Shown: positions 30,150 through 61,904 of the stretch, one piece after another
Layout of the letters: the number at the start of each line of letters is the position of its first letter
Numbering within the stretch: position 1 is the first letter of the stretch
Assembly: GCA_022478985.1 (NCBI GenBank)
Contig: JAKSZP010017358.1
Coordinates: 1-64,000 of the forward strand
Reading direction: 5' to 3'
DNA from: Massospora cicadina
Taxonomy: Eukaryota > Entomophthoromycota > Entomophthoromycetes > Entomophthorales > Entomophthoraceae
Length of the DNA stretch: 64,000 nucleotides
Notes under the pieces: model-generated
Database searches by the model: none
What the model saw: the letters and a program-made list of their open reading frames with translations, nothing else
Told to the model about the DNA's origin: nothing
Program-made: the position numbers and the translations under genes

Positions 30150-30154
30150 CTCCC

Positions 30155-30611
30155 TTTTGAGATTTTGATATGACTGGACAAAAAGTACTTATTTGGAAGA
30201 TTGTGTAATAATTGCTGAAGGGGGATTTGAATTTGGATAATAAAATTAACGAATAGAGTAAATCCGTTATAGCCTCAATGATGAGGAAAAACCTCTAAAA
30301 TCATTGGAAATGAAGTGTTTATAATCAGACAGCCCAAAATAGATGAGACAATTGCAGATAAATAGTTGAATGGAAGAATGTAGGGGAGGTCTTGTATGAA
30401 GAAGGATGATAGTAAGGAAGAGTTAATGAAAGTAGCCATTAGTCTTATATTAAATAAATTGGTATTGTTGGGGCAATAGCTCCTTAACAAGTACTTTCTT
30501 ATTGTTAATTTTCCAGGACCAGCGATTCTCATATTGCTTGTACGTTGCTCAGTGGGTGGCACCCTGTGCAACCAATTCTGCGGAATCAACCAAATCTGCC
30601 AAAAGTTAACA
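30155..30611 (+). repeat. 5' LTR of element G
   Basis: 457 bp ending GTTAACA. The U5 motif GCTCAGTGGG...CCCTGTGCA is at 30544-30570. The start is TTTTGAGA where the partner has TGTTGAGA, so the first G has mutated. Confidence 0.88.
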
Positions 30612-30612
30612 G

Positions 30613-30629
30613 TGGTGCTTACTACAGGG
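30613..30629 (+). other. Primer binding site of element G
   Basis: TGGTGCTTACTACAGGG, two bases inside the 5' LTR. One base differs from the site in element I (54425-54441). It would pair with the 3' end (ACCA) of an unidentified tRNA. Confidence 0.7.
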
Positions 30630-30674
30630 GGCGCATTGATCAGCACTAGAAAATCTTTATATTCCCCAAAAGCC

Positions 30675-32100
30675 ATGGCGCAATTGGCTCATCTTGACAG
30701 GGTACATCCCTAGCTTTTTTTATCTCAATACATGGAACTGAAGCTTGCCTTGGATACACTACTCCAGGCTCAAAAAATGCTTTTTCATGAGAATTAAAGT
30801 ATAACCAACTAGCTTACCAAGGCCTCTCACTAACTGCACCTGGTGGGTGGCCAAACCTATTAATTTGCTAACTGCTTGAGTGAAACTATAGAGTGGCTAT
30901 ATTGCGCAGAGCGTAAATGAAATAGTTGTTCTGGGGAGGAAGGGGTCTGCATTTTCCAGCTGCCCCTCATTTATCCGTGATAAAAACATAGTCAGATTTT
31001 TAAGTTGTTTGAATTTTCAGTAGAAGGGTCTTTTGACTGGAGGAAAGTTAAGCTGCTGTTATCTTCTCTAGATGTCAAGAGTCCTGAATAGGTCACCTGT
31101 TACCTTAACATTTGTATCATAATGTATCAAGAGGTGAAAGAGACCGTGATCTACCTATTTGGTGGCGTGGCAAGAATGACCCAACGCAAGGCAGAGTTTT
31201 TTATTATAAGTTTCAAATGAACGAGTCATTGGTGGAGTTCACAGAGCGGTTAACAGCTGAGGCTTATGTGTTGTTGAGGGCAAATATCATAACTGAAGAG
31301 GAGGTGGGCATAGTGATAACATCGGCTATCAAGCCATATAGAGAACTGTATAATGCTATGAATCACATTCTTTATGATGATGCAAGCTATAAGAATTGTC
31401 AATTGTTCATGCCGCCTATCTATCACATTAAGCGCCCTAATGTGGAATGGAAAGTCCCTGCACCTGCTACTGAATCCCCATCACGAGATGGACACCAATG
31501 ACTTAGGTACAATTCAGTGGTTAATCCTTGTCCATTTAACGCTCTGGCGGTTCCTTTCCAGCCCATTATATGCAACCAGCTCATCATCGGCTGAAGTACA
31601 ATCCATCAACTGATTTCTGACCTGGACCTGTAGTTGCAATACAGGGATGAGTGCCATTTACAACTGCTTGTTTCTCGTGTGGTCAAAGAGGCCATTTTGC
31701 TGTTAGCTGTCCAGGCAAACTGAATGTCCATGCAGTACACGTTGCCCCAAACAGACAGGGTAAAGCTCGAAAAAAGTAGATATGGGACGCTCTACTTCTG
31801 CTAGTTTAAACTTATTTGTCCCTGATGATACCAACGAATCACTTTATGTCAGACCCAGTACTAACTCTGATGATTTATTGTAGAAAAAAATTTCTGAAAT
31901 ATATTGTCTTCAAACCAATGAAGAAACCCAATAATGCAGACTTGGAATATCGCAGAGATGTACAAAAACCGTATGCCTAACAAATCCTTGAGCAGAATGG
32001 TAAAGTTGACGGCAGACCCTCAACAAATGTTGCAACTCTTGAAGGGGTGAGTATGGCGATTCTCATAGAGAAAATTTCCAGGAGTATCCTCGTGTTGGTG
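30675..32100 (+). pseudogene. gag of element G (broken; cut by element E)
   Basis: Begins at ATG 30675 (MAQLAHLDRVHP, then a stop). A frame near 30735 gives MELKLALDTLLQAQKMLF, matching gag of elements A and E. The capsid frame is 31112-31501 (FYYKFQMNESLVEFTERLTA, then EEVGIVITSAIKPYRELYNA). An intact CCHC zinc knuckle is at 31669-31710 (CFSCGQRGHFAVSC). The reading then runs toward protease until element E inserts after 32105 inside LIEKISRSILVLVPV. The next codons continue at 46208 beyond E (LDVHVINTNG). Confidence 0.88.
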
Positions 32101-32105
32101 CCAGT

Positions 32106-32602
32106 TGTTATAACATTGCAATATATTGTAGATATGATAAAGAGGTTGCACAGGGTCAATTCCACTGAACAATGGATGGACAATATGGAGATCATCAGTC
32201 TAATATAAACTTAACAAATATAATATAAACCCAAAGCAATTGTTTCATTGATAACACTTTTATTTCTTATAATATATATCACGCAGACCTTACTGCTAAA
32301 TTTCTTATTCTTAGTCAACTGATCCCCTTCCTTCTCTTCACCTCTACCTCATATCTTTATCATTTCCAGTCAGTTTTGACCCTTCCGCTAAGTTACTCTT
32401 GATTTATTACTTTTTTCTAAGGGTTCACCTCATCAAGAATCTCTGGTGGAACTCCTCCTATTTTTTCCAAGGTTGACTTTGCTTGTTAGCAAATTATTTT
32501 GAATTAATTGATAAAACTTATATAGGCCTAATCTCGCTGAATAACAAATGATCCGCCAGTGGTTATTTTGGCTTATTGTCCAGTCATATAAATTTCTTGA
32601 CA
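32106..32602 (-). repeat. 3' LTR of element E
   Basis: 497 bp, TGTCAAG...TATAACA on the minus strand, clearly similar to 45716-46207. It shares with it ACTTATATAGGCCTA (a likely TATA region), and the U5 motif is at 32146-32173. Confidence 0.9.
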
Positions 32603-32605
32603 TTA

Positions 32606-32621
32606 CCCCCCCCCCCCCCCC
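32606..32621 (-). repeat. 16-base homopolymer in the polypurine tract of E
   Basis: Sixteen consecutive C on the plus strand, that is G16 in element orientation, directly before the 3' LTR. Related elements have only five or six G at this place, so the tract has expanded by slippage, or this is an assembly artefact. Confidence 0.85.
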
Positions 32622-32664
32622 TTTGACTGAACGATAAGCTGTACGCTATTCTTTGACTATTATG

Positions 32665-35362
32665 CTATGAAGACAACAATGTGACAACATACAAGAGCTC
32701 GAGATCCCAACTTTTTCATTCACTTTCAGCTCAGTTTGGATATGGATGACCCAGGCTTCATCCCACTCCCCCAGTTCCCCCTCCCCCAGGCGATGATGGA
32801 GAGCTAAAGTGGACGCTGTGACCCTTCTGGCCCAGGAGGAGCTCCTTCTTGAATTCGTCAGGCATTTTTCTTACTTATGCACCCCATTCAGGGGCATAGT
32901 GGCCCAGTTATGCTGGGGAGGGGAGTGTAGCCAAGGCCCTTTAATTAACAATGCGGCCCAGCTCCTAGTGGATGGCTTCAGTTGTCTAGTGCTCCTGCCT
33001 CCCACTGAGCCTCATCCCAAGGTATTGTTAGTCTGATGGATTCTGTGCTTCATGTGGTGGGTGGTAGCCAGCTGGTTGGGGTCCTTCCCCTGTGCTCCTA
33101 CCCACTTCCAGTCCCAAGGGGTGAACTTCCAAAATTACTGGTTAAATTCATGCAATATGGTGTTGCCGCAGCATTTGCTGCCCTTAGCGCCAATGAACCG
33201 TCCCAATATCTCCCCATCATGGCGCTCTTTGGTAACATGGTCTTTTTTCATACCATTGGCAAGTTAGGTTAGGGATGGAGCAGAACCAGGCGGCAAATGA
33301 GTGGCCCAGCGAGCATCTTTTACAGCTGCTTCTCCCTTCCTGGTGCTTATCATAGCATGGAAAACTTCCTTGTGGATTGCCTGGCATTGGGAGCAGCCTT
33401 TTCCCCATGAGCTGGGACTCACCTTCTTGCTCGCCAGCCCTTGTGACTCCTGCACCCTCTTCTCACGTACTCCTTGATCTCATGAGACCATCAGTGCATG
33501 TGTTTGAGGGCTTTGCTCCTAGTTGGGCAAGAGCAGGATTGTCTCAATTATCCATATGAGCTATTCCTTTAACCTTTTACCATTGGTACCCAGAACCCTC
33601 ATCCTCCTCTAGTTCCGTCACCCCATCCTCCCCGATATTTGCTGCCAAAACAGTCCCAGAGTGGATACCAACTCCCTCACCCCTGACACAGCAGCCTCTA
33701 CCACCACCACCAACGTGAGAAGGGTCCAGCGAAACTGTGCCACTGTAAGTCCAGGGGAATGTCCCCTGTGCATGGATCGGGCGATTTTCCCATTTCCAAA
33801 TAAAAAAGGTCCAAAGAGGGCGGCTGTACCCCTCATCACCCAGGGCGACCTCGCCCATGTGGTAGATGAGCTCTGGGTAACAGCCCTCCCTCTTAAGATT
33901 CCTCCCCCAGTACCCACACTCACCTCGACCAAACTTCTCCGCCAAATTGAGGAAATCTCCACTGAGATTACCAATTTGAAGTTGGAAGGTCCAAAACTGA
34001 TGGGAACAAAGCCCAACAATTGGAAAACATATAGTCAAAAAGGGACAAGTATTAATTTATTGGCTGGAATTTCCGACGGTTTCAACTCATCCAGCAGTAT
34101 GATTGCTGACGCCAAACACCCCTCAAAATTGTCAGGGATGATCCCCAATGTGCAGATGATATCTTCAAGAATCATTGCAGACAATTTGAAACTCCTGTCC
34201 AATGAATAAGGAGTTGCAGCTGACGTAACTCATTTGATCAATTAAATGTTCCAGAGACTAGGCATGGGTAGTTTAAGCATCCTAAACCCATTTCCAACCA
34301 ATTTGGGACCGCCCTTATGTGGGGTGGCCCTGGGGAATTCCCGTTGCTCATGGGGCCAGATGCTGTTGCGCCAACCAATGAAAACGCAGCTGAACCTCAG
34401 TCTAGGCATTCATGGTTAAACTGATAGCGACTCAGCCTAAAGCTGAATCCTTTGATGTCAGTTCAATTGAGATTATCTGCCTTCTTCCCCAAAGATTGCC
34501 AGGTTAGGTCAAATTTGAGGGACCCTATCCCTGCTTTGACCAGCTACCAGTCAAATACTATTTAATTGGTTGCATCGAACTGAGTAAATGTTTATCACTT
34601 CTCTTTATTTTCCTTTCCAATAAATTTCTCACTAAAACTCAATTTTTTACTTTATTTAAATCCATTTTTTGTTGAAGTCCCGATGGCATTAAATGGTGAC
34701 CTATCAATCCCTACACCAGATGGGCAATACCAGTTTTGATGATTAAAATCACTCCCCCATCATCAACTGAATTCAACGTGCAAGAAACTTCTGGCAATTT
34801 AACCCCATTATTAAACTATCCGCTATCAATATACTGGGATCTTGTGGCCTTATATTCACCATTTTCAAGCAAGGATCTGCCCCCTTGTCTTTACGATAGT
34901 AATGAACCCACCCACCAGCAACCCTTTAAAAGCCAACCCTAGAGTACAATACCCTGAAGCAAGACCCTCAGTGTCTGGGGTTGTTCCCATTTTATTTAAT
35001 TTCAGGTTCCTTTTCATTCTCGTTCTACATCAATGAGTCATTGTTTTCCAATTTGCAGCTTCATATAACGTTGTATGAGCGGCAATGACCCTGGTATTCT
35101 GGCTTGCTTTTTGGGTGATTACGCATCCTAAAAGGCAGGCTAGTCTAAACTTCTTCTGCCGTTTTCATGACAGTCAACCCCATAGCGGTGAAAGAAGAAA
35201 CGTGGGTCCCACCAATCAAGGCACAAGATGCACCACAAGAAACTTAGTAAGGGCAAGGAGATGAAGATTCCCTAGCGAAAGAACACAAGCAATGACACCT
35301 AATAAACTTAGCTTTTATACCCCACATGAATTAGACTATACTTTCCCTTATTTATAAGTCTC
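32665..35362 (+). mobile_element. ~2.7-kb insertion of uncertain origin in element E
   Basis: Element E integrase-end sequence is interrupted near 32665 (CTATTCTTTGACTATTATG) and resumes near 35363 (CTATTGCTGTTTATATA...AACTTCACATGCACTCAG). The inserted block is richer in G+C than its surroundings, with Pro/Ser-rich plus-strand frames, and has no LTR features. It may be an ORF1-bearing LINE or SINE-like copy. The ends are approximate, and I could not define a clean target duplication. Confidence 0.5.
32742..34209 (+). pseudogene. Unrecognised coding-like region, possibly LINE ORF1
   Basis: From ATG 32742 (MDDPGFIPLPQFPLPQAMM, then a stop), reading passes through frames 32809-33036 and 33036-33272 (LPKLLVKFMQYGVAAAFAAL, then MALFGNMVFFHTIGKLG). 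It ends in the long open frame 33661-34209 (182 aa). That last frame is Thr/Ser/Pro-rich at the start, has GECPLCMDRAIFPFPNKKGP, and has a helical segment (LLRQIEEISTEITNLKLEGP). There is no recognised domain. Its position inside a transposon, the frame breaks and the Pro/Ser-rich beginning suggest an ORF1-type gene. A captured host fragment is the alternative. Confidence 0.35.
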
Positions 35363-35369
35363 TATTGCT

Positions 35370-36580
35370 GTTTATATACCCAAAGTAACTTCACATGCAC
35401 TCAGTTAATAATCTGACCACTAATGGGGTCCTTGATAGTCTAGGAATCAAATTTTTTTATCATCTCAAAAGGCCAATCCAGATGCTAGTTAGCTTATGCT
35501 TTCGCCAAAACCCATTTGGATCGTGGAGTAGAACCATATCCCCATCTTTGAACTGCGCTAGCCCGCTACACTATTGCTGATTGGCATCCTGATACTTTAA
35601 CTTCTTGGCTAAGCTGAACGAGTATGATTTGGTTTGTGGTTAAATAAGTGTATTTGTTAGGGTGGTCAAGTAGCGTTGAGGATCCATTCTGCCGGTATCT
35701 TCCATGCAGGCATAGAGCAGTTCAGGTAGTTTGGTCTTCCATCCATATAGTATCTGGAAAGGACTCTTCCCCGTTGCTTAGTGGTAGCTAATATTTTAGG
35801 CGAACACAGCGGTGGAAAGGAGGGTGATCTAATTGGAGGGTCTATCTGTAACCAACTTATGAAGTATGATCACCAGGGTCCCATTAACCCATTTGACCAT
35901 TCCGTTGGATTCTAGGTGATACTGGGGTTGTTAGAGCCCCACAGATGACCATCATTTCGTTATGCTTGGGATGTGGGAGGTGAAATTAGTTCAGTTGTCA
36001 GTAAGGATGAACTGAGGGCAGCCTTGACACTGAATTTTACTTTCCATTACAACTTAGCCACAGTAACTGACCCCCAGATACCATATTGCCAAGCATCAAC
36101 CCACCTGGTTAAGTGGTCATTTTCCACCCAGTATACTTAGACCGGTTGCTCATGTCAGCAAATGCCCAACGACGTCAATGGATACTGTGTGCCAGGAAAA
36201 ATGAGGTTTCGCCAGCTGGTAAGAGGTCTTCCGGTGGAGCAGCTTCTCCACTTGGCACTGATGGCAGCAGGAAATGGTCTTTAGAACATCAAAGTGCATG
36301 CTTTCCCAATAGTATCAAGGCTGTTAGTATTTTAACGTCTTTCATAATCCTCCATGACCCACCGCCTTGTGCGCGTTCAAAATAATGTCCAGTTTAGCGG
36401 AGTGTTTTGAGAATCTCAGCATATTGTTACCAATCCACTTATATAACACCCCATTTTTTCAGATTGTATTGGCCATCATCCCATCTAGCACACAAATAAC
36501 TTGCGACGATTCATCTCATATTACCACTGACCATTTTTCCATATGGAAATTCACCCAAATATGATTTTACCACAATAAGT
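35370..36580 (-). pseudogene. Integrase of element E (broken)
   Basis: Identified mainly by close nucleotide similarity to the integrase part of element A, in the same order. The C-terminal end starts at ACTCAGTTAATAATCTGACC, then the stretch corresponding to the RYLTNL and NQHGF segments, then core and zinc-binding regions at about 35800-36400. Hardly any minus-strand frame stays open, so this is the most damaged integrase of the A/E/G/I group. The plus-strand ORFs in this interval (35395-35580, 36113-36385, 36367-36564) are shadows. Confidence 0.8.
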
Positions 36581-36589
36581 GGTTGCCAG

Positions 36590-38010
36590 GATAAGCATTC
36601 AGCATTTTGGTGCTTTTGCATGGGAATGATGCAATATTTCTAAATTATAAGCCTGCAGCTTTAGGGCCCATCTAACAAGGCGCCCTTCAGGCTCACAAAG
36701 GTTTTGTAACCAATGCAATGACTCATTTTCCATCATGACCTTAAATTTTACTTTATTAAGGTAGGTAAAGAACTGCTTATATGTATAAATCTCAGCAAGA
36801 CACTCCCACTCAGTCATAATATAATTCCATTTGTGGCAGTTCAAGCTCAAACTACAATACGCAATAAGGTGCTCCACGCCGTCATCATCCTTCTGGGATA
36901 ATACCGCCCATATGGTGGAAAGAGATGCACCTGTTTGTACAATAATTTCCTTCTTAAAATTAGGGTATTGTAAAACTGGCACACAAGCCAATGCGGTCTG
37001 TAAAGCATTGAAAGCATTTTGACTGTTCTCAGTCCATTCAAAGGTTGCATTTTTCTCTAATAACTTGAAAAGGGGAGCCCCAATACAGCTGAAGTCAGGG
37101 ATGAACCGGCGGTAGTACCCAATGATTCCTAAGAACACATGGATATCCCTCTTGTTGCCTGACTGGGTCATCCTTTATATAGCTTCAATCTTTGCCAGCT
37201 TAGGTCTAAGCCTTTTGGAGTCAATCACAAACCTAATGTATTCCAACTAATCCTTATCAAAATGGCATTTTGAAGTTTAATTTAAATGTTTTCTTTGGTA
37301 AGACGGTAGAAAACTTGCTCAAAATGGTCTAGATGTTTGGTGAACGTCCACAAGAACATTTTGAAATCATCAAGGTAGACTGGCATGCAGGACAACTCAA
37401 GGTCACCAAAGATGGTGTCCATCTCCCATGGGAACGTAACTGGGGCATTGCATAAACTTGGGGCATACATGTGGGTTGGAACAACCCTTTTGAGGTGATA
37501 ATATCACATTACTCTAGTTCCAATATTGGCAACTCGATTTGACAGTAATCTGATACAAATCCATGGCCAAAAGATAGTTGGACCCACCCGTTTGATACAG
37601 AGCATCATTAATTCGCGGGAGAAAATTTAAATCTTTTTTGTTATACAATTAAAGCTTCTGGTAATCAATTAGTACTCTATTAGTGCCATCCTTCTTTTTA
37701 ATGATCAGCACTGGTGACGCCTATGAGCTCTTTGATGGCTCTAACATTCCCTGTTCAATCAATCTACTACTTCATAGATACAACCTCTTCTACCGCTTTG
37801 AATCAAAGGATAGGCCATGATTGAATGGAAGGGTGGTCTCCAGTGTTTAACCTATGCACCACCCTGTAGGCATCTCCAAAATCGTGGTCGTCAGATGCAA
37901 AAATGTTTCAATCTTTTCAAACAGGGCCATCACCCTATCTATCTGATCATCTGAAAGCCCAGTCAGGGCTTCACGCGGAACCACAGTCATTACATTGGCT
38001 GCAGTTTTTC
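36590..38010 (-). pseudogene. RT and RNase H of element E (broken)
   Basis: The minus-strand frame 36599-37171 (190 aa) is the longest pol piece of E. It runs from the RT thumb and connection (KRDIHVFLGIIGYYRRFIPD, FSCIGAPLFKLLEKNATFEW) into RNase H. There the first Asp position reads QTGASLSTIW (Gly for Asp), and WECLAEIYTYKQFF follows with its Glu. The RT palm at 37282-37470 has MPVYLDDFKMFLWTFTKHLD, keeping YLDD. The fingers at about 37560-37980 are scattered over frames. Confidence 0.87.
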
Positions 38011-38049
38011 ATATAGACTAGATCCTCTCATGAATCAAAGTCATGTATA

Positions 38050-38914
38050 TGATAAACCTCATCAATCATAGTCAGATGCAGAAAAGCCACCACTTGGTAT
38101 CATTGAACCACCATAGACTCCTCCTGTAGGTTTGCTATTAAGACCTTCACTTCTCCATGCCCTGGTAACAGTTTTTTAGGAGCCGCATGGTGTTCAAGCA
38201 GTGATTGCTGGTAGGGACCCTTGATTTCACCATAAAAGCCTTCAGGGCCGTCTGTTTTGAGCTCTGTCCCTACTATAACTTATCTTAGAAGGTATACTTA
38301 GGGTGGCCGCAGCCCTTAGAGGAATACCATTACACTCATAAATCAGGTTAGGGAGAGCACTGGTACTCCACTTCATCTGCTGATAGCAAACAGGAACTAC
38401 GCCATCGCTATAAAAGAATTAATTTATAGGAGTTTATTGGGTCTTCTGGGACTTGTTGGATTTAAAATAAATGAGGATCTGTTGTCCCAGGATTTTAAAA
38501 GTTCCCTAAAACATATAAATCACTGCCTTAAATTGCCACATGAATGTGACCCCAATCAGCATGTCATAATTATTATTGGACAAAACCACAGCCAGAGCAG
38601 GTGCGCTGATTGACCTGAACCTCAAAAGCAACGCGCTTTAGGCGCCCTCCAACACAGTGCTTTATTCCCCAACGGTCCCATAGACTACTTGATGGTCCAC
38701 ATCAGGCTTCAGCGGAAGCTTAGCCACTAGCCAAGTGGATACTATATTGATGGGGAATCCAGTATCTATAATAGTTTGAATTTTGGTATTTCCTACAAAG
38801 ATATAACAATAGTTGTACTCTGAATAAAATGACCAGTTGGACTTTAACACATGCACATTAACAGGCTTCCTGTTATTGAGAAAAGTGTAAATTCTAGAGC
38901 CAACATGAGGATAC
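38050..38914 (-). pseudogene. Protease and dUTPase-like domain of element E
   Basis: The minus-strand frame 38662-38916 holds the retropepsin start. It begins with the linker YPHVGSRIYTFLNNRKPVNV, then YIFVGNTKIQTIIDTGFPIN with an intact DTG, then IVSTWLVAKLPLKPDVDHQV. Beyond 38660 the frame breaks. The dUTPase-like barrel is recognised at about 38050-38350 by nucleotide similarity to A and I. The codons upstream of YPHV are found at 44203 on the far side of the LINE, so the LINE split this linker. Confidence 0.8.
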
Positions 38915-38989
38915 ACTAAAACTTTTCTTTCTCATTGCAATCACTTTTGCAACCTATTCAATTCAAGTCTGAATCTAGTTTGATAATCT

Positions 38990-40423
38990 CACAGAGGAGA
39001 TTAGTCTGCGCCCATTTCAGGAAGCAGTTGGGCAAGTAAGGTAAGAGGAGCAGGTGGAAGGCCCGCGGCCTCGAACGTTTGAAAACGCCCCAGAGAAACT
39101 GGCAGAATAGACAAAAATTTTAAAAAACTGGCTGTCAATATTTCTCCAGAAATACTCACATGGCAAGCACAATGCAACCAGTACATCAACACGCCGCACT
39201 CCCAGCCACTTTCGTCGGTGGAATATGGAGTCCGCATGTTTCTGGACATCCACCAAATGGCTTTATGGGAAAAATTTTGTAAAAGATGTTCACACCTTTT
39301 TCCCAACTGCAGTGTACGTCGCACCTCACTCCATGTCACGAGGTTGGCTGACCTAGGTTTTAAAAACAAAGAGGCAGCAGATGAGGCTGCTGTGGTGTGC
39401 ATAGTGGTCAACCTCCCCAAAGGGCAACGGGTTGTTGAAACCAAATGCACCAGATGGATGAAATCAAACCAAATTTTTCACACGTTTGACTTTTTGCCTA
39501 CTATGTTAAACATGACATTTTGGAACAACACCTGAAATAAGGTCTCGCCATATATGGCGAAATACAATCTTTTGAAATGCAACGCTTCACGCTGATGCCA
39601 CACCTGTGCACTGGCAAAGCCATCGCAGTTTTGACCCCAACTGAGGAGATCGTGAAGGACCTAACCCAGATCCCATACTCCACTTTTATTAATATTGAAG
39701 GGCATACCACCCACCCATTCTGGGTGACCGTGGACAGTGCGCCCCCCATCTGCACTCACTGTGACGCGTTCGGCCATAAGGCACACGCGTGCCCCATCAA
39801 AGAGGGCGTTACATTCCAAGAGCACCCCTCAGTGGCCATGGCCAGCGGAGAGGCGCACTACAAACCAACCATAAGCACCAAAGAGGCTTTCCTTAGGGAG
39901 CACAAGGCTGCTACCTACTAGTAAAGCCCATCTCCCCGCAAGAGTGGAAGAAGGCCAAGCAGGCCTGCAGGGCCGTGGCCAAGAAGCGGCCAAAGCCACC
40001 ACCGCTATCTCATATTCCCAACGCCAGGAGGACATTGAAACCTTCACGGCGGAAGCAACTTGTGAATCCATCAACCAATCAGATTGGGAAGCCCATACCG
40101 ATTGGGCCACTCAATCTGATGATTTGATGGGGGGCTCAATCTCACCAAATCATTGCACCCAAGCTCCAGTTAAAACTGACTTAGGGCCCATCCCAACTAA
40201 GAATTTTTTTGACCCGATCAATAGTGCATCAAACTCATCTGCACCACAAAAGATTTTGTCTGACGTTGGGGAACAAAAAGTAAAGGCTAAAGCCAATGCA
40301 ACTCTTTCTGCAAAAATTAACAAAAATCCCAATAGCATTGCTGCTAACACCCATGCTGCCGTGAAGGTCCATGGGGATCTAGAGGAGGCTAGTGGGCCTG
40401 GGCGTCCACCCCCTCACACCTAA
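38990..40423 (+). pseudogene. LINE ORF1 (nucleic-acid-binding protein, broken)
   Basis: Three successive plus-strand frames. 39218-39535 contains LWEKFCKRCSHLFPNCSVRR and the core NLPKGQRVVETKCTRWMK. 39577-39921 contains MPHLCTGKAIAVLTPTEEIV and a zinc knuckle at 39751-39792, CTHCDAFGHKAHAC (CX2CX4HX4C). 39944-40423 is a charged, Ala/Asn-rich tail. ORF1 proteins bind the LINE RNA. This one ends about 30 bp before the first ATG of ORF2. The large opposite-strand frame 39001-39450 has no such motifs and is a shadow. Confidence 0.8.
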
Positions 40424-51906: not shown

Positions 51907-52680
51907 TAAATACTGGCGCTACCATCAATATTATTTCTACCAAACTTATGGCTGAGCTTCACTGAAGCCTGATGTTAACAACAAATAGTGTATGGGACTT
52001 CAGGGGCACAGAGCACTGCGTCAGAGGGCGCTTAAGTGCATTGCTATGAGGTTCAGTTTGTTAGGGGCATCTTCTCCTGCGGGGGTTCTGCCTACTAATC
52101 ACTATGACATGTTGATAGGGGCTGCATTCATGCGGTAATTCAGGGAAGTGATTAATATGGCGGAGGGAACTTTTGATATCCTGGGAAAACAGATCCCCGT
52201 TTATTTTAAATAAAATGGATTCTCAGAAGACACAATTCACTCCAGCCAAAATCAATCTCGTGTTTAGCAATTGTGTGATTACTGTACAATATCAGCGAAT
52301 GAAGAGGAGTACCTGAGCTCTTACTAACCAGATTTACAAGTAAAATGGTATTCCACTACAGGCTTCGAGTGCTTTAAGCATACCTTCTGTGCATCAGGTC
52401 ATAATATGGAAAGAGCTCGATATAGACATCCCTGAAGGACTATACATGGAAATTATGGGGCCATACCAGCAATTGCGACTAGAACCTATGTGGCTTTTGG
52501 GCTCCTATTGCTTTGGCCTGGGGAAGTGAAGTTGTTGATAGCAAACCTGCAGAAGGAGTCTATGAAGGTACAAAGAAACCAAAGGGTGGCCTATTTGCAT
52601 CTGATTCCTATCGCTGATGTCCACCAGATACATCGCTTTGTTCTTGGGAAAGCTCTTAGGCTACCTATAAAAACCTAACC
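51907..52680 (+). pseudogene. Protease and dUTPase-like domain of element G
   Basis: Resumes G after element H. Codons ITNTGATINIISTKLMAEL stand at the retropepsin active site (NTG for DTG). NHYDMLIGAAFMR closes the protease near 52140. At about 52395-52640 the barrel reads HQVIIWKELDIDIPEGLYME then IMGPYQQLRLEP, and after a shift, GEVKLLIANLQKES and QRVAYLHLIPIADVHQI. The same order occurs in element I. Frameshifts are present in both parts. Confidence 0.82.
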
Positions 52681-52687
52681 CAGTGTA

Positions 52688-53861
52688 ATGACTGTGGGTC
52701 TGCGTGAGGCTCTAACTGGTCTGTCGAAGGACCAAAAGGACAGGGTGATGTACCTATCTGAGAAATACCAAAGCATCTTTGCCTCTGATGATCATGATTT
52801 GGGATGTGCACATGGGATTGTGCATTGCTTGGACACTGGAGATTACCCTCCTATTCAGTCACAGCCTATCCATTGCTTAAAGGTGGCGGAAGAAGTTGAT
52901 TCTGAGGAGATAGATAAATTGGTTGAACAAGGAATATTAGATACTTCAAAGATTCCCTTGGGCGTCCCTGGTGCATATCTTCAAGAAGAAAGAAGGCCCC
53001 AATGGAGTAGTAATTAAGTACTGGAAGCTTAAATCATATAATGAAAAAAGATTTATATCCACTCCTGCAAATTGATGATGCTTTAGATCAGCTGGGAGAT
53101 GCCAAATATTTCTCCGCTATGGATTTGGTATTGTGGTACTGGCGAAACGAGTTGCCTGCGGCAGAACAAGAGAAAGCACTTTAATCAACTTTAAGGGATT
53201 GTTCCAGCCTACACTTATGCCACAGGGTCTGTGCAACGCCCCAGCTATGTTCCAGCGGGCTATGGACACTATCTTGGCTGACCTAAAGCTGCCTTGCGTT
53301 CTAGTCTACCTTGATGATATCAATGTGTTCTCACGGATGTTCACAGAGCATCTTGGCCACCTGGAACAAGTGTTCTGCTGACTCTCTGAAGCTAACATCA
53401 AGATTAAGCCCTAAAAGTGTCACTTTTTTGAGATAAGGTTGAAATACCTTAAGTTTTTTGATAGACTCAAAATGGCTTAGTCCTCAGCCAGAAAAGGTGG
53501 AAGCTGTATGCAAGATGAATTGACTGGGGAATAAGTGGGATGCTCAGATGTTTTTGGGGATGCTCAGAGACTACATGCGGTTCATTTCTCAACTTCATCT
53601 GTATTGAGTCTCCATTATTTGAGTTATTAAAAAAGAATGTTACCTTTGCCTGAACAGACTGTTGTCAAAAGGCTATAAAGATTTTACAAACTGCGTTGGC
53701 TAGTGCACCTGTTTCGCAATACCCTAATTTCAAGAAGGAATTTATTGTAAAAATGGATGCTTTCCTTTCCGCCGTTGAGGCCATGCTATCCCAAAAAGAT
53801 GATGCCAGTGTGGAGCAACCAATCATGTATTATAGCTGAAGCATAATAGGTCCTGAACATA
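52688..53861 (+). pseudogene. RT and start of RNase H of element G (broken)
   Basis: Frame 52688-53017 covers the segment before RT and its fingers (GLREALTGLSKDQKDRVMYL, then SEEIDKLVEQGILDTSK). 53133-53381 has LFQPTLMPQGLCNAPAMFQR and LPCVLVYLDDINVFSRMFTE, with an intact YLDD (53307-53318). RNase H begins near 53700 with KKEFIVKMDAFLSAVEAML and stops in SIIGPEH where element I inserts. It continues at 59948. Confidence 0.88.
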
Positions 53862-54423
53862 TGTCACAATTTCAATATGACTGGATGATAATCGTGAGAC
53901 AGCTAGGGCTAATTGGGAAGAATCCGCTGGACTTGATATCAGTTACAATTATTTGAGTGCCTTGAGACAAGGCGATATATGGGATATAATGTGCTTATTA
54001 TAGGATCGCCGCTAAATAAGGTGATAGGGCGATGTCAATATTCTGCAAATACAAATTAAATAGCCTACAATTAGGGCGATATAGAGCTAAAGAGTAACAA
54101 GCCAAAATGAGGAGAATTGGTGAAACATAATAGTCCAAGCTATGAGAAGGGTATTTTCCAAAGCTGCTGTATATAAGCGAGATGGGCGATTTTGAGGGGA
54201 AGGTTGCTTTTAGTTGAAGAGTTAGCAGAACATCGATAATCTGCTGTATTAAATATATTAAATAAAGAAGAGTTATGAGTTTGGGTGCACCATATTTATT
54301 TTATGTTTATTCTGTTATTTCCAGGGCAATGATCATCACATCATTGGTTCTAATTGCTCAGTGGGTTGAACCCTGTGCAAAAGCCCTTAGGTGTATTTCT
54401 CAAATACCATCGATTTTATAACA
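53862..54423 (+). repeat. 5' LTR of element I
   Basis: 562 bp, partner of 59390-59947. Contains TATATAAG (54170-54177), AATAAA (54261-54266) and the U5 motif (54353-54379). Confidence 0.93.
54170..54177 (+). promoter_or_regulatory. TATA box in the 5' LTR of element I
   Basis: TATATAAG, about 85 bp before AATAAA. Repeated at 59698-59705 in the 3' LTR. It fits the U3/R promoter of an LTR element. Confidence 0.6.
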
Positions 54424-54424
54424 G

Positions 54425-54441
54425 TGGTGCTCACTACAGGG
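54425..54441 (+). other. Primer binding site of element I
   Basis: TGGTGCTCACTACAGGG begins two bases inside the LTR. The implied tRNA 3' end is ...CCCUGUAGUGAGCACCA, which fits a tRNA acceptor and T-stem (C61, discriminator A). The same sequence lies at this place in A, E and G. Confidence 0.75.
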
Positions 54442-54482
54442 GCCCATTGATCATTTATAAATAATAAACTCAGCTGCCTGCT

Positions 54483-55884
54483 ATGTCGCATCCAGGTTTC
54501 TTTGATATGGAATCTGCACGACACGCTGGGGCCATTGCATATGAGGAATTGAAATTTGCATTGGACACTGTGCTCAAAAAACAAGATTAACTTCTCCAGA
54601 AAGTTTGCAGTTATAAGCTGCCGCCATTTGACCATGAAGGAGATATTCATGGGTTCTTTCAACAATTTTAGTTTGCAACTGAAGGAGCCTCAGACCAGCA
54701 AAGGGCGAAACTGTTGATCTCAACCTTGAATGTCAGAAATGCTTATCAAGTCATTTGTTACCTTCCAGATAGTTCCTTTACATACCAAGAAGTTAAGAAG
54801 ATGGTGCTGCAGTTGTTTGGAGGAACTGAAAAGGTTTCGCAGCAGAAAGCCAAGTTCATGACCATTAGTTTCATCAAATTGAGACCCTCACCGCATTTGC
54901 TGAACGTTTTATGGTGGAAGCCCATGTGTTGATTGGGGCAGGGATTTTGTCTGAAGTTGATGTGTGCATTGTAATGTCCTCTGCGGTGAAGCCATACCCT
55001 GAGCTTTACAATGTCATGGCCCCATTGTTAGAGGACAATGTACCTCTTCTTAAACTTGTTCAGTTTGTTTGTCAATTAGCTGTAACTTTCCCTCCACCCA
55101 ATACAGAACAGATTCACACAGTCACCGTGGCCAACCCTAATCATGTGGGGGGAATCAACCAGTCAGTGCAGGTTCTACCAGGTTACTCACTGAAATCTGA
55201 CATCTGTCCCATAACTTTCAATCACAATTGACCAACTATCACTTCTGGCCCTAAATACGATGATCAACAGCAGGCGCTCTACCAATGTGGGTCTATTTAC
55301 GCCAATCATCTTCAGAATAACCTTCCGAGGGGGCCAACTTATATTAAGGACAGACGTAGGCCCTATGGAGTAAGTTGTTTAACTGCGGTTGCACTGGGCA
55401 CAGGGAACGATGGTGCCCCAATCGACAGATCCTTTTCTGTAAAGCAGGATCAAGATTATCAGGGAAAAGTCAGAGCAGAGTAGAGATGGGACTCTCTACT
55501 TCCTCTATCTCGAATTCATATGTCCCACCTGAATCTACTGTAGTAATTGAAGCAGAACCCTCCCAGTATGACTATACATTCCTCTACCAACAGCTGGGTG
55601 GGGGAGTAAAGGTGCTGACTCAAGCACAAGTCAAAGAAACGGCGGACATAGGGTTTCCAGAGCAGCCAAGGCCTTACGCTTGTCAAATGTTTGACCAAAG
55701 TCCATCAGATCAGCTAGGACCATTTGCAGATGCACTGTCTCTAAAAGGAGTAAAGATTCCCCATCTAGTGGACGCTATTATAACAGTGTACCCTACAGTT
55801 GGCGCGGGTACTATAAGTTTCCTGGGAAAACGTGAACCGCTGAATGTACACATAGTAAATAGCCAGCATTCATATTACTTGTAG
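54483..55884 (+). pseudogene. gag of element I (broken)
   Basis: Start ATG 54483 (MSHPGFFDMESARHAGAIAY). An early stop follows KKQD. Frame 54714-54932 gives LNVRNAYQVICYLPDSSFTY and MVLQLFGGTEKVSQQKAKFM. Frame 54911-55231 gives MVEAHVLIGAGILSEVDVCI. A CCHC knuckle at about 55376-55423 (NCGCTGHRERWC) has its first Cys shifted out of frame by a one-base loss. The linker 55390-55884 (169 aa) is open and ends with DAIITVYPTVGAGTISFLGK. Confidence 0.88.
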
Positions 55885-56680
55885 TGCACTTACTGTGACA
55901 TTGTGGTAGCCAAAACCCAAGTACAAGCTATAATTGATATGGGCACTCCTGTTAACATTGTCTTCATTAAGTTGGTGGCGAAGTTGTCTTTAAAACCTGA
56001 CATAGACCACTGGATGGTGTATGGGACTTCTGGAGCGGAAAACACAGTCTCTTAGGGAGCGTATAGCGCGCTTCCCTTGCGGTTTGGATCTGTTGTTGTT
56101 GTGGCTCCAGAGGTAGTATTACAAATAGCAACTATGATCTGTTGATTGGGACTGCTTTTATGAGACACTATGGGGCTGTTGTTGACATGATAGAAGAGAA
56201 CCTTGCTATTTTGGGATAGTGTATCCCAATTTATTTTACCTCCAGCAGAATTCTGAAGGGCTTGGTGCATCTGGGACAGATCAACCTTGCCTACAGCGAT
56301 GGGGTAATTTCAGTGCGCTATCATTGAGTAAAAGGGAAAACTTGGGTTCTTCCCCACCAAATATATTAATATCAGGGGCTACCGCTTAGAGCAGCTGGAG
56401 CTATATTCATTCCCTCTGGACATCAAGTAATAGTAGACACTGAGTTAGAAGTGGAAGTGCCAGCTGGGCTTTATGGGGAGATCATTGGGCCTTATCAGCA
56501 ATCACAATTTGAGCCCCACGTGGCTCCAGGCATCATACTTTCAGGCCAAGGTGAGATCAAGATATTGATAGCAAATCTTCAGACCAGACCACTCCAAATC
56601 CGCCGGCATCAGAATATAGCGTATTTACATCTGAACCTGCTTGAGGAGATCAACAAGGTTCACGAGTTTGGTTCCTTGGA
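55885..56680 (+). pseudogene. Protease and dUTPase-like domain of element I
   Basis: The retropepsin is at about 55885-56230: CTYCDIVVAKTQVQAIIDMG then TPVNIV, with DMG for DTG. The next domain, about 56380-56640 and open from 56451, reads GAIFIPSGHQVIVDTELEVE, then VPAGLYGEIIGPYQQS, then APGIILSGQGEIKILIANLQ and QNIAYLHL. This follows the dUTPase barrel order: IPPG, lvdTgl, vP.GlyG.I, GxI...GEIkvlI.N, I...IA.l. The RSG motif and the Asp of GxID are missing, so it is probably structural rather than catalytic. Confidence 0.82.
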
Positions 56681-56689
56681 TGAATTTGG

Positions 56690-58110
56690 TCTGCCCATCA
56701 AACCGCAGCCCAGTGTAATGGCAGTTGTGCCATGGGAGAATTTAATGGGGCTATCAGAAGATCAGAAGGATTGGGTGTAAGCTTTATTTAAAAAATATAA
56801 AGAGATTTTTGCGGTTGAAAATCATGATTTGGGGTGCGCTTGGGGGGTTGTTCATCAGCTGGATACTGTGGATCATCCCCCCATCAGGTCTCAGCCAATC
56901 CGCAGATCAAGGGCAGCTGAAGAAGTCATCACTGAGGAGATTGATAAGCTGCTAGAGCAGGTAAATCTCAAACCATTTAGGAGTCCATGTGCTTCGCCTG
57001 TCCTATTTGTTAAAAAGAAGGATGGTACTAACTGCATAGTAATTGACTACCAGAAGCTCAATAGTGTCGCCAAAAAAGACTTATACCCTCTGCCACAGAT
57101 TGATGATGCGCTGTATTAGCTAGGTGGAGCTCACTACTTCTTGGAAATGGACTTGATATCCAGTTATTGACAAATTGAGTTGCCCGCGGCAGAACAAGAA
57201 AAATGCGCCATAATCACATCCAAAGGGCTTTTCAACCAACTCGGATGCCACAAGGGCTATGTAATGCCTCAGCTACGTTCCAACGAGCAATGGACACCAT
57301 TCTGGGCGATCTGAAGCTGTCGTATGTACTTGTGTACCTTGATGATATTAATGTCTTCAGTCGCACGTTTACTGAACACCTTACCCATTTGAAAGAGGTA
57401 TTTCGCCAACTGGCTGAGGCCAATATTAAGATCAATCCCCATAAATTCCACTTCTTCAAGGATCAGCTGGTTATCTTGGTTTTGTGGTGGATGCGACTGG
57501 GCTAAGACCCCAACCTGCCATGGTGGAGGCTATCCATAAGATGACTAAGACAGTTAGTAAGTGGGACATTCAGGTGTTTTTGGGGATGGTGGGTTATTAC
57601 TGACGCTTCAATCCCAATTTCAGTTGCATTGGAGGTCCGCTGTTTGAGCTACTAAAGAAAGATGCCATGTTCAAATGGACAGAATGGCACCAATGTGCCT
57701 TTAATAAACTTCTAATGGCACTAATTGATGCGCCCATGTTGCGCTACCCTGATTTTGATAAGGATTTTATAGTGCAGACGGATGCATCACTTTCTGCTGT
57801 TGGGGCGGTCCTGTCTCAGAAGGACGATAAGGGGGAGGAGCACCCCGTGGCATACTGCATTTGCAGCTTGAATTGCCATGAACGAAATTACACAGTAACC
57901 TAGTGGGAGTGCTTAGCGGTGATTTATGTGTATAAGCAGTTTTGAGTTTAAATGCATGAAGTAAAGTTTAAGGTTGTAATGGATCATGCATTGTTGCGCT
58001 GGTTGCAGAACTTTAAAGAGCCTGAGGGGCAGCTAGCCCAATGGGCTCTTAAGCTGCAAGCTTACAACTTTGAAATTCTTTATCAACCAGGAGCAAAATA
58101 CCAAAACGCC
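56690..58110 (+). pseudogene. RT and RNase H of element I (broken)
   Basis: Frame 56829-57119 has [20 protein letters not shown] and [20 protein letters not shown] (fingers). Frame 57203-57505 has PQGLCNASATFQRAMDTILG and VLVYLDDINVFSRTFTEHLT, with YLDD at 57335-57346. Frame 57667-57903 has DKDFIVQTDASLSAVGAVLS, keeping the first RNase H Asp. Frame 57952-58215 has KVVMDHALLRWLQNFKEPEG and AKYQNANCLSRFPTIAV. Stops at SSY-stop-QI (CGA to TGA) and GYY-stop-RF, plus three frame changes, break it. Confidence 0.92.
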
Positions 58111-58114
58111 AATT

Positions 58115-59385
58115 GCTTATCAAGATTTCCAACAATTGCAGTTATGGCAGATTTAAGTGACATAATGTTTGACAAAATTCTCAGTAGAAAGTATGACAAC
58201 AACCCCCCCAAGTGATTAAAGCATTGAATGAAATGAAAACAAATACCTTCCAAAGGAATGGGGAACTGTACAAGCATCTAGCAATTCTACGGTGAGCTTT
58301 CTGTGACCCTCAGCAAGGCCAGGAATTATTATGAGTGCCCACAAGGCAGTTGGACATGGTGGGGTGCGCAAGACAATGGTGTTGTTGCGCCCTCAGTACT
58401 ATTGGGAAAGCATGAACTTTGATGTGCTCGAAACCATTTCCTGTTGCCATCAGTGCAAAGTGGAGAAGCCATTCTGCCATAAGACTTTGTATCAGTTAGT
58501 GAAACCACATTTTGCTTGGCATACAGTTTCCTTTGATATCGTGGTCCCTTGCCAACAGGAGCTAACTGGTGTAAGTACATTCTTGTGGCTATCGACCACT
58601 TGACCTGGTGGGTTGAAGTGAGGGCGATATGAGATTTGTGGGAAGTTACATTTGCCAAGTTCGTGAAGGAATGCATTATTCAGAGATACGGCTGCCCTCA
58701 GTTTATTCTCACTGATAATGGAACCAACTTCACCTCGCACATCCTCCCCAAACTGAATGAGCTTATGGGAATCCACGGGGTTCTGATGACCCCATACCAC
58801 CTCAAATCTAATGGAATCGTTGAACAGGTGAATGGGACTCTGGTGAACATCCTATGAAAATTAGTAATGGATTGACCTTCTGATTGGACCTCCCTCCTTT
58901 CCACTGCCATGTTCGCCTATAACATTAGTTATCACTCTATATGGGGAAGAGTCCTTTCCAATTACTATATGGCTGACACCCAGTTCTTCCAGCGTTACTT
59001 TACTCGTGTGTAGAAGACACCAGATGAATGGAACCCCACCGCTATCTGACTAACCTTGTGAACATTCTGATCAAATTGAAAACCAAAGCATATTTCTTCA
59101 GCTTAGCCAAAAAGATCAGGAATCAGGCCAATGATCAGGTACATCATAGCGGGTTGGCGCAGTTCAAGGAAGGCGATAGGGTTCTCTTCCATAACCAACA
59201 TGGGTTCAGGCCGAGATAATTGCTGGCCAGTATTTGGATTGGTCTGTTCAAAGTTATAGAAAAAAACTGGGTTCGACGCATATAACATCAAGGACCCTAC
59301 AAGTAGTCAGATCATTAACTGAGTACACAAAAATTTCCTCCAACCATACAAACAATATGAGTCTTACCGTACAGTCAAGGAGGGG
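58115..59385 (+). pseudogene. Integrase of element I with GPY/F-type tail
   Basis: The zinc-binding domain at 58331-58603 has SAHKAVGHGGVRKT and CCHQCKVEKPF. The core has the first Asp in VSFDIV (58535), the second in [11 protein letters not shown] (58714) and Glu in [10 protein letters not shown] (58822); the last two are 35 residues apart, the canonical D-35-E. There is a frameshift between the first two. The C-terminal part reads YLTNLVNILIKLKTKAYFFS, NQHGFRPR and LASIWIGLFKVIEKN, a GPY/F module with Leu for Pro. No chromodomain follows before the polypurine tract at about 59376-59389. Confidence 0.9.
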
Positions 59386-59389
59386 GTAA

Positions 59390-59947
59390 TGTCACAATTC
59401 TGATATGACTGGACAATAATTCGTGAGACATCTAGGGCGGATTGGGAAGAATCTGTGAACTTGATATCAGTTACAATTATTTGAGTGCCTTGAGATGAGG
59501 CTATATATGGGATATAACTGGTTTATTATTGGATCGCTGCTAAATAAGGTGATAGGGCAATGTCAATATTCTGCGAATACAAATTAAATAGCCTACAATT
59601 AGGGAGATAGAGAACTAAAGAATAACAAGCCAAAACGAGGAGAATTGGTGAAACAGAATAGTCCAAGCTATGAGAGAGGTATTTTCCAAAGCTGCTGTAT
59701 ATAAGCGAGATGGGCAATCTTGAGGGTAAGGTTGCTTTTAGTTGAAGAGTTAGCAGAACATCGATCTTTGCTATATTAAATATGTTAAATAAAGAAGAGT
59801 GTGGGAGTGGGTGCTCCATATTTATTTTAATTATATTCTAGATTTCCAGGGCGACAATCATCACATCGTTGGTTTTAATTGCTCAGTGGGTTGAACACTG
59901 TGCAAAAATCTTTGGTGTATTTCTTAAATACTGCCAATTTTATAACA
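59390..59947 (+). repeat. 3' LTR of element I
   Basis: 558 bp, partner of 53862-54423. It differs by scattered substitutions, roughly one in ten by eye in the first 150 bp. It is preceded by GGAGGGGGTAA. Confidence 0.93.
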
Positions 59948-61440
59948 ATGTAATTACACTGCGACACAGCAGAAGTGCTTAGTAGTAATATATGCATATA
60001 AACAGTTCTGGGCCTACCTTCATGGCGTTAACTTCAGAGTGGTCATGGATCATGCATCCTTGTGGTGGTTATAGAGCCTGTGAGAACCTGAAGGATGGCT
60101 TGCGCGATGGGCCCTGAAGCTACAAGCGTATGACTCAAAATTATACACTTACCAGGGGCGAAACACCAGATTTCAGACTGTCTCTCATGACTACCAACCG
60201 TCTCCATCATGGCAGATTTGGTGGACATAATGTATGAGAAGATGCTTATGGTCAAATATCACAATGAGCCGCCACATGTGATCAAAGTTTTGGATGGGTT
60301 ATGGCGGGATTCATTTCTGCACAATGGGGAGCTATATAAGCAGATTGGCGAATTGATGCTGAATTTCCCAAACCTTCCACTAGACCAGCAATTATTATGG
60401 ATGATCATAGAGCGGTAGGTCATAAAGTGGTGTGGAAAACACTGGAGTTCTTGCGACCCCATTACTATTTGGAGAGTATGTACTATGATGTGCTTGAGAT
60501 GCTTGCTTGTTTTCACCAGTGCCAAGTGGAGAAACCATTCCACAAGAAAACCAAATACCAGCTGGTTAAGCCTCTGTTCAAATGGCATACGCTTTTACTG
60601 GATATGGTGGGGCCTCTGCCAACTTGTGCGAACCTCTCAAAGTAAATAATAATAACCATTGATAATTTGACATGATGGGTGGAAGCCAGAGAGATCAATG
60701 ATTTAGGGCTGTCAAAACTGCCAAGTTCATTCTGAAGAGTGTCATACAGTGACACGGTTGTCTGCAATTTATCCTCATAGACAACAGATCCAAATTTCAC
60801 GTCACATATTCCTAAATTGAACAAGCTGATAGCAATCCGCGGGGTCGTGACTACACCATACCACCCTGTATCTAATGGAATGGGTGAATGGGTCAAAGGA
60901 ACATTTTAAATATTCTCTGCAAGCTTTTGAAGGATCAGCCCTCTGAATGGAGTACCCTCTTATCCACCACTGTCTTTGCATATAATATCAGTTACCACTC
61001 ATCAATAGGGAGGAGTCCCTTCCAATCGCTCTATGGTAGACATCTGGCTTTGCCTGCTCTGCTTTACTCCTGTGTGGAGAATACTGGCGTAGTAGAAACG
61101 CAGCATTATCTGACCCAATAATGGACGCTTTGATAAAATTACAGATGAAAGCTTATTCTACCAGCTTAGCTAAGAAGATTTAAGATCAGGAGGCTGACCA
61201 ATGCAGATGCAGCAGCCTCCCCCAGTTTGAGGTATAAGATCTTGTCTTGTTCCATAACCAACGTGGGTTTGGAAGAAGGAACAAGCTTGCTAGTATATGG
61301 ATCAAACCATTTGAGATTTTAGAGAAGACTGGCATCAACGCCTACACTATTAAGGAACCTGTGAGTGGTTGGATTATCAATTGAAGTACATGCAAAGTTC
61401 ATTTGGGAATACAAGCAATATGAGCTTATCATCTAATAAA
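59948..61440 (+). pseudogene. RNase H end and integrase of element G (broken)
   Basis: Continues G after element I. QQKCLVVIYAYKQFWAYLHG and VNFRVVMDHASLWWL complete RNase H. Frame 60209-60418 is the linker (MADLVDIMYEKMLMVKYHNE). 60397-60645 is the zinc-binding domain (CFHQCQVEKPFHKK) running into WHTLLLDMVGPLPT, with the first core Asp. The second core Asp region near 60780 is damaged (LIDNRSKFH). 60888-61121 is the late core (EWSTLLSTTVFAYNISYHSS, then IGRSPFQSLYGRHLALPALL). The C-terminal GPY/F tail is at 61130-61430 with NQRGFGRRNKLASIWIKPFE. No chromodomain. Confidence 0.88.
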
Positions 61441-61449
61441 GGGGGGCAA
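61441..61449 (+). other. Polypurine tract of element G
   Basis: GGGGGGCAA, preceded by AATAAA, directly before the 3' LTR. Confidence 0.75.
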
Positions 61450-61899
61450 TGTTGAGAGTTTGATATGACTAGACGATAAGTACATATTTGGTACATTGTG
61501 TAATATTGCTGAAGGGGAATTCAAACTTGGATAGTCGATTTGGAAAATAGAGTGAATTCCACTAGAGCCTCAATGATGAGGCAAAACCCTTAAAACATTG
61601 AGAATAAAGTGTTACTAAGCAGATTGCCAAAAATAGACAAAAGGATTGCAGAGAAATAGTTTAATGAGATAATGTAGGAGAGGTCTTATATAAAGAAAGA
61701 GGTAGTAAGGAAGAGTTTACAGAAGTAGCCGTTAGTTTTATATAAATTATTTTGGTATTATTAAGATAGCTCCTATTAATTACTTTATAATTATAATTGT
61801 CATTGACCAGCAATCCTCATATCGCTCATCCATTGCTCAATGGGTTTTACCCTATGCAACTAATTTGGCGGAATCAACCAAAGCTGCCAAAAGTTAACA
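61450..61899 (+). repeat. 3' LTR of element G
   Basis: 450 bp, TGTTGAGAG...GTTAACA, partner of 30155-30611. The pair differs more than the LTR pairs of H or I, which fits G being the oldest member of the nest. Right duplication CTCCC at 61900-61904. Confidence 0.9.
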
Positions 61900-61904
61900 C
61901 TCCC

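What the first reader, a model, noticed from the sequence alone, without database searches (positions are those of the whole stretch)
30150..61904. Three-level nest: one 6-kb element stretched over 31.7 kb, with exact target duplications
Element G is bounded by CTCCC at both ends. Inside it lie E (CCAGT), H (GATTA) and I, and inside E lies a LINE (13-bp duplication). G codons read on across each break: 32100 to 46213, 46330 to 51907, and 53856 to 59950. This gives a relative order of insertion (G first; E, H and I later; the LINE after E) that LTR divergence can test independently.
Basis: seen in the sequence. Interest (0 to 1): 0.75.

Follow-up and report, generated by a model that had tools for sequence, protein, structure and literature searches.

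The report
Jumping genes nested inside jumping genes
A 6-kilobase retrotransposon in a very large, probably fungal genome has been split by later retrotransposon insertions; the layers and their order are real, but this is an ordinary kind of structure in repeat-rich genomes.

Summary
Confirmed. G (30155-61899, target duplication CTCCC) holds E (CCAGT), H (GATTA) and I; E holds a LINE. Strongest test: related G copies in the same 1.47-Gb genome carry the empty sites. With the two flanks aligned separately, they overlap by exactly 5 bases at E in 12 of 14 usable copies, at H in 14 of 15, at I in 11 of 12 (15 examined); at the LINE by 16 in 12 of 14. I's mismatched flanks (ACATA/ATGTA) fit one ACGTA decayed at its CpG on opposite strands; two copies still read ACGTA. 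LTR divergence (K2P): G 0.224, E 0.197, I 0.103, H 0.098. G exceeds H and I in all 2000 bootstraps, E in 78%.

The nest is deeper than stated: G sits in an older dispersed repeat with visible empty sites, and E holds an unnoticed solo LTR (33744-35172). Genome traits fit the fungus Massospora cicadina (inferred). The nest is a known kind. Side leads: insertions cluster at the gag-protease junction; A and I share a probable conversion tract; a dUTPase-like domain lacks catalytic motifs.

The parts
29640..30154 (.). left part of an older dispersed repeat into which G inserted (ends with target copy CTCCC, 30150-30154)
   Evidence: 374 first-look candidates, 40 scored; flanks overlap by exactly 5 in 8 of 19 distinct places
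30155..61899 (+). element G, Ty3/gypsy LTR retrotransposon, outermost of the reported nest
   Evidence: LTR K2P 0.224
30155..30611 (+). G 5' LTR
30612..32105 (+). G piece 1 (gag region), ends with E target copy CCAGT 32101-32105
32106..46207 (-). element E (same dUTPase-like Ty3 lineage), inserted in G
   Evidence: LTRs 32106-32602/45716-46207, K2P 0.197; empty site in 14 usable of 15 copies
32660..33730 (.). repeat Y inside E's span next to its left LTR; own 3' region of E or a further insertion, not settled
   Evidence: 1307 candidates, 40 scored, the 39 others 75-80% identical
   Evidence: ends recur in most of the 5 other copies printed; 5-bp flanks GCCAC/GTCAA do not match well
38918..44189 (+). 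LINE inserted in E, 16-bp target duplication 38902-38917/44190-44205 (15 of 16)
46208..46335 (+). G piece 2 (gag-protease junction) between E and H; target copies CCAGT 46208-46212 and GATTA 46331-46335
46336..51901 (-). element H, a different Ty3 family, inserted in G; no dUTPase match in the four H pieces scanned
   Evidence: LTR K2P 0.098; Pfam gag (below cut-off), RT, RNase H
51902..53861 (+). G piece 3 (dUTPase-like domain, RT, RNase H start); target copies GATTA 51902-51906 and ACATA 53857-53861
53862..59947 (+). element I (dUTPase-like Ty3 lineage), inserted in G
   Evidence: LTR K2P 0.103; Pfam dUTPase, RT, RNase H, integrase
56370..56777 (+). dUTPase-like domain of I, canonical motifs absent
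   Evidence: Pfam PF00692 E 1e-6
56664..57440 (+). probable gene-conversion tract shared with element A (inverted, about 51 kb away)
59948..61449 (+). G piece 4 (RNase H end, integrase)
61450..61899 (+). G 3' LTR, followed by target copy CTCCC 61900-61904
61905..62415 (.). right part of the outer repeat, with weak internal inverted symmetry

Best explanation
Successive retrotransposon insertions. G, a Ty3/gypsy element, integrated into an older dispersed repeat. Later E (a relative), then a LINE into E, and separately H (another Ty3 family) and I (a relative) integrated into G's body. Each LTR element made a 5-bp target duplication and the LINE a 16-bp one. The copies then decayed, partly at CpG. 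Shown: borders, duplications, empty sites in related copies, colinear order. Inferred: integrase and target-primed mechanisms (from the named families), and the host fungus.
For: Exact 5-bp flanks at 3 of 4 LTR elements of the nest, the fourth fitting CpG decay. Empty sites in same-genome copies: overlap exactly 5 in 12/14, 14/15 and 11/12 usable of 15, and 16 in 12/14 for the LINE; the target reads CCAGT in 6 of 14, GATTA in 6 of 15, ACGTA in 2 of 12. G pieces colinear with A and I. K2P G 0.224 (0.177-0.277), E 0.197 (0.155-0.244), I 0.103 (0.077-0.133), H 0.098 (0.073-0.124). Outer empty site for G.
Against: G and E cannot be ordered by LTR divergence (G larger in 78.3% of 2000 bootstraps). 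G-family copies vary widely in divergence, 0.091-0.212 (5 copies). H's LTRs hold a 101-bp identical stretch (5 of 1000 permutations), so H may look too young; the other four pairs tested show nothing (249 to 946 of 1000). At the H and E breaks the frame changes by 1-2 bases. For G's own site 8 of 19 places give exactly 5, 8 give -1 to 11, 3 do not span.
Confidence: 0.96

Rival explanations
1. Assembly chimera: unrelated repeats were joined by the assembler and look nested.
For: A repeat-rich 1.47-Gb assembly in 16968 contigs invites misjoins.
Against: Misjoins would not leave matching target duplications at fixed LTR ends, nor flanks that meet with a 5-base overlap in most usable related copies.
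Confidence: 0.02
2. The inner elements arrived by segmental duplication or recombination between elements rather than by transposition into G.
For: Exchange between elements is likely here: A and I share a low-divergence tract.
Against: Each inner LTR element has its own two LTRs and a duplication of G's own sequence at the break.
Confidence: 0.02

Closest known systems
Nested LTR retrotransposons of plants (1491 pairs in PMC6911290, outline, abstract and passages seen; 4126 pairs in PMC7251063, passages seen)
   Same: Later LTR elements inside older ones, mostly 5-bp duplications, topology as a relative clock, inner elements on average younger by LTR divergence
   Different: Here probably a fungus, with a LINE and a solo LTR also in the stack; LTR divergences were not compared number by number with those papers
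dUTPase-bearing Ty3/gypsy elements of fungi, PosPlaTy3-5 of Postia placenta (PMC2864245, passages seen)
   Same: dUTPase domain between protease and reverse transcriptase
   Different: The copies read here lack canonical catalytic motifs; whether PosPlaTy3-5 keeps them was not checked
Ty3 and L1 landscape of Entomophthoraceae, notably Massospora cicadina (PMC11105155, section 6 and passages; PMC9584336, passages)
   Same: Genome about 1.49 Gb, GC 41.1%, Ty3 burst near divergence 20, LINE expansion after it; PF00692 noted as a TE-linked enriched domain in Entomophthora muscae
   Different: Those are genome-wide summaries; here one locus is resolved layer by layer. The species match is inferred

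Membership tests
Ty3/gypsy LTR retrotransposon (G, E, I) | Two LTRs (TG...CA) with a short target duplication | tested here: met
   G's 5' LTR begins TT, its 3' LTR TG; I's duplication differs at 2 of 5
Ty3/gypsy LTR retrotransposon (G, E, I) | Integrase downstream of RT and RNase H | tested here: met
   G: RVT_1 at 53079-53378, Integrase_H2C2 at 60340-60642; I likewise. For E only its RNase H piece was matched to Pfam; its order rests on alignment to G
Ty3/gypsy LTR retrotransposon (G, E, I) | RT nearest to Ty3 among solved structures | tested here: inconclusive
   Tested only on the RT piece of the related element A: Ty3 RT 4ol8 E 8.8e-20, Ty3 Gag-Pol 7q5b E 3.8e-19; the pieces of G, E and I were not searched
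Chromovirus (chromodomain Ty3) | Chromodomain at the C end of integrase | not tested
   Only selected stop-to-stop pieces were scanned; none of them showed one
LINE (38918-44189) | Non-LTR type RT and a variable, longer target duplication | tested here: met
   RVT_1 E 9.1e-13 and 6.6e-9; 16-bp duplication and empty sites; no LTRs seen
LINE (38918-44189), L1 type | Zinc knuckle in ORF1, zinc-binding domain after RT, A-rich tail | tested here: inconclusive
   zf-CCHC_6 20.5 bits (cut-off 22), zf-RVT 22.8 bits (cut-off 27.5), 3' end AAATTAAATTAAAA; other LINE clades not compared
LINE (38918-44189), L1 type | Endonuclease domain | tested here: inconclusive
   No Pfam match in pieces 40424-41104 and 40857-41612
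Active dUTPase | Canonical motifs 1-3 and 5 of the trimeric enzyme (motif patterns recalled) | tested here: not met
   Among 91 sources motif 3 was found only in L026 and motif 5 only in L026-L028. Motif 2 also in L089 and motif 1 also in the window, L014, L017 and L059; the window ones lie outside any dUTPase-like stretch or on the wrong strand. A second group of copies keeps Asp and Tyr of motif 3 (PG.LD..YQ, L029-L037)

The most novel reading that the evidence does not exclude
The gag-protease junction of this dUTPase-like Ty3 lineage is an insertion hot zone: unrelated LTR elements and a LINE repeatedly strike the same roughly 140 bp, three of them within 17 bp, so that nesting in this genome is guided by local DNA or chromatin and not random.
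Probability: 0.3. Interest if true: 0.5.

Novelty: new member of a known kind. Interest (0 to 1): 0.27.

Why it matters
As a nest it is ordinary. Its use is as a clean internal standard: topology gives the true order, so LTR dating can be checked in a giant, probably fungal, genome. Here it passes for H and I and is uninformative for E. It also shows that such dating must allow for CpG decay and exchange between copies. The clustering of insertion points and the motif-less dUTPase-like domain, which has thousands of first-look candidates, are the parts worth a genome-wide follow-up.

Tried and rejected
Plant host: rejected as unlikely, no chlorophyll a/b-binding match, while long chitin-synthase matches occur (36 matches, 58 candidates, best 8.6e-279). 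Homologs outside: the dUTPase-like piece found none (30 candidates, 0 hits), an RNase H piece found 2 proteins without names (28 candidates), two pieces in viral contigs found none. Rfam and tRNA scans: nothing. Single-sequence fold of the dUTPase-like piece: useless (mean pLDDT 32), so no fold search was made. G-family age as a second clock: uninformative. H and I order: not resolvable. First empty-site runs with fewer copies or six copies in the wrong orientation are replaced. Whether repeat Y belongs to E: last search not answered.
Full report
What is there. The window is the first 64 kb of contig C14995 (114851 bp) in a 1.470-Gb assembly of 16968 contigs. Self-comparison and LTR alignment give G 30155-61899, E 32106-46207, H 46336-51901 and I 53862-59947. 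Flanking pentamers are CTCCC twice, CCAGT twice, GATTA twice, and ACATA with ATGTA for I. G and I run on the + strand, E and H on the - strand (polypurine tracts read). The LINE runs 38918-44189 with AACATGAGGATAC(A/G)CT at both ends, 15 of 16 identical.

Colinearity without splicing. Each of G's four pieces was translated and compared with the other elements on its own. Against A the pieces fall in one order, and across each break the matched ends lie a few bases to about 310 bp apart in A, consistent with the unmatched piece ends. I gives the same order. Coding pieces carry RT (53079-53378) and the integrase zinc domain (60340-60642) in the Ty3 order. Frame continuity is exact only at the I break, against I and E and not A.

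Empty sites. 15 G-family copies from the same genome were used: 4 of the 5 contigs (beside the window's own) where one search listed two LTRs on one strand and I took them for a pair (fetched; C43 was left out) and the 11 best hits to 51907-52400 other than the window itself. For each break the left and right flank (120 bp each) were aligned separately to each copy. A first run had six copies in the wrong orientation and a score cut of 60; one search corrects this, with a cut of 40. Site E: 14 of 15 usable, overlap 5 in 12 and 8 in 2. Site H: 15 of 15, overlap 5 in 14 and 7 in 1. Site I: 12 of 15, overlap 5 in 11 and 6 in 1. The copies not used are L019 at E, and L011, L019 and L025 at I. LINE site in E, tested on the same 15 with 150-bp flanks: 14 usable (not L019), overlap 16 in 12 and 17 in 2. 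The copies read ACGTA at site I in L009 and L022, the state from which ACATA and ATGTA arise by one CpG change each; three read ACATA (L012, L017, L021).

Ages. K2P: G 0.224 (95% 0.177-0.277), E 0.197 (0.155-0.244), I 0.103 (0.077-0.133), H 0.098 (0.073-0.124), A 0.102. G exceeds H and I in all 2000 bootstraps and E in 78%. Five other G-family LTR pairs give 0.091, 0.122, 0.144, 0.183 and 0.212, so the family stayed active long after this G. No rate is known for the host, so no years are given. PMC7251063 reports that about one fourth of nested plant elements show higher LTR divergence than their hosts (passages), so a G-E tie is unremarkable.

Deeper than three levels. The flanks of G (29640-30154 and 61905 onward) meet in related repeats elsewhere. 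Of 19 distinct places (20 fetched loci, two overlapping), 8 give an overlap of exactly 5, 8 give values from -1 to 11, and 3 do not span; two distinct places read CTCCC. E also holds a 1429-bp solo LTR X at 33744-35172; of 5 other copies printed, most begin and end at the same bases. Next to it lies a repeat Y, 32660-33730. X's own flanks, GCCAC and GTCAA, match poorly.

Host. Chitin synthase families are present, chlorophyll-binding proteins not found, size 1.470 Gb, window GC 0.421. The published Massospora cicadina assembly has 1.488 Gb, 19694 scaffolds and GC 41.13% (PMC9584336, passages), and PMC11105155 reports for it a Ty3 burst around divergence 20 and a later LINE expansion. The match is an inference, not a test; other giant fungal genomes were not compared.

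Possible hot zone. One G-family copy (C1458, L019) lacks the left flank at site E because another LTR element of about 8.2 kb, with repeats of about 330 bp, sits there; by eye it is flanked by AGTAT, overlapping the CCAGT that E used. The LINE target in E ends 4 bp upstream of the same place. An I-family copy (L054) is interrupted about 60 bp downstream and H sits about 125 bp downstream. Counting ten breaks in five window elements and 23 fetched copies (15 G-family, 8 I-family), judged by eye, five fall in 141 bp: 30 of 20000 coverage-weighted simulations reach this; three fall in 17 bp: 113 of 20000. The widths were chosen after seeing the data, the list of breaks is hand-made (L021, with patchy matches, was not counted; the repeats in E's 3' part count once; the nature of the L024 break is unclear), and the unbiased survey could not be run, so this stays a lead.

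Exchange between A and I. Their internal parts differ at 13.6% of sites outside, but 4.1% inside 56664-57440 (32 of 776; 0 of 500 permutations). That is below what their LTRs have accumulated since insertion (Fisher 1.4e-6 all sites, 0.0035 without CpG). Against 8 other copies, A is I's nearest inside the tract (4.1% against 8.6-11.6%) but not in the flanks (14.0 and 13.3%, where L057 is nearer to I and L051 to A). In the whole genome A is the best match to I's 56500-57500 among 39 other scored places of 14471 candidates (94% against 91% for the next). Gene conversion between inverted copies about 51 kb apart fits; the tract border was found by maximising, so the Fisher values are optimistic.

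dUTPase-like domain. I carries a PF00692 match between protease and RT (E 1e-6); G's is weak (0.0074, below cut-off). Nine copies (A, I, G, E, J, L009-L012) share the alignable domain, several with stops or frame changes. Genome-wide, 10109 first-look candidates were found and 150 scored; the best, 147.5 bits, is a canonical enzyme on C9994. Canonical motif 3 occurs only there, and motif 5 only there and on C6901, among 91 sources. Of 35 loci expected to hold an element copy, 20 read GPYQQ or near it, the 9 of another group (L029-L037) read PG.LD..YQ or near it, which keeps two motif-3 residues in most, and 6 match neither pattern. PosPlaTy3-5 has a dUTPase in the same place (PMC2864245, passages), and PMC11105155 lists PF00692 among TE-linked enriched families, so only the loss of motifs may be new; the listings showed no paper on it, and I opened only a few of those papers.

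Verdict. A true, well-preserved nest with a correct relative order, a new member of a known kind, with side leads of moderate interest.

Noticed in passing
window 56370-56777, and A, G, E, J, L009-L012, L029-L037: dUTPase-like domain between protease and RT; canonical motifs 2, 3 and 5 were not found in the element copies read, though most of L029-L037 keep two motif-3 residues. A canonical copy exists on C9994 (L026).
   Followed up: partly
window 56664-57440 and about 4905-5682 (element A): Low-divergence tract shared by inverted elements A and I about 51 kb apart, probable gene conversion after both had inserted.
   Followed up: partly
I coordinates 55790-55931; G 32101-32105; E 38902-38917; L090 (C1458): Five of ten insertion points counted in this lineage fall in 141 bp at the gag-protease junction, three within 17 bp.
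   Followed up: partly
window 53857-53861 and 59948-59952: I's target duplication fits CpG decay on opposite strands (ACGTA to ACATA and ATGTA); ACGTA survives at the empty site of L009 and L022.
   Followed up: yes
window 33744-35172: Solo LTR of a high-copy family inside E (9787 first-look candidates); a relative (74% identical) interrupts a G-family copy (L019).
   Followed up: partly
window 32660-33730: Repeat Y (1307 first-look candidates) inside E's span, unplaced.
   Followed up: no
window 62418 to contig position 69727: Element J, same lineage, - strand, LTR K2P 0.17, runs beyond the window.
   Followed up: partly
window 46594-46695: 101 bp without a difference between H's LTRs (5 of 1000 permutations), possible conversion within H.
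   Followed up: no
L026 (C9994) and L027/L028 (C6901): Two different canonical-looking dUTPase sequences; the one on C9994, a 19.5-kb contig, looks unlike the other and may come from an insect or virus contaminant (impression only).
   Followed up: no
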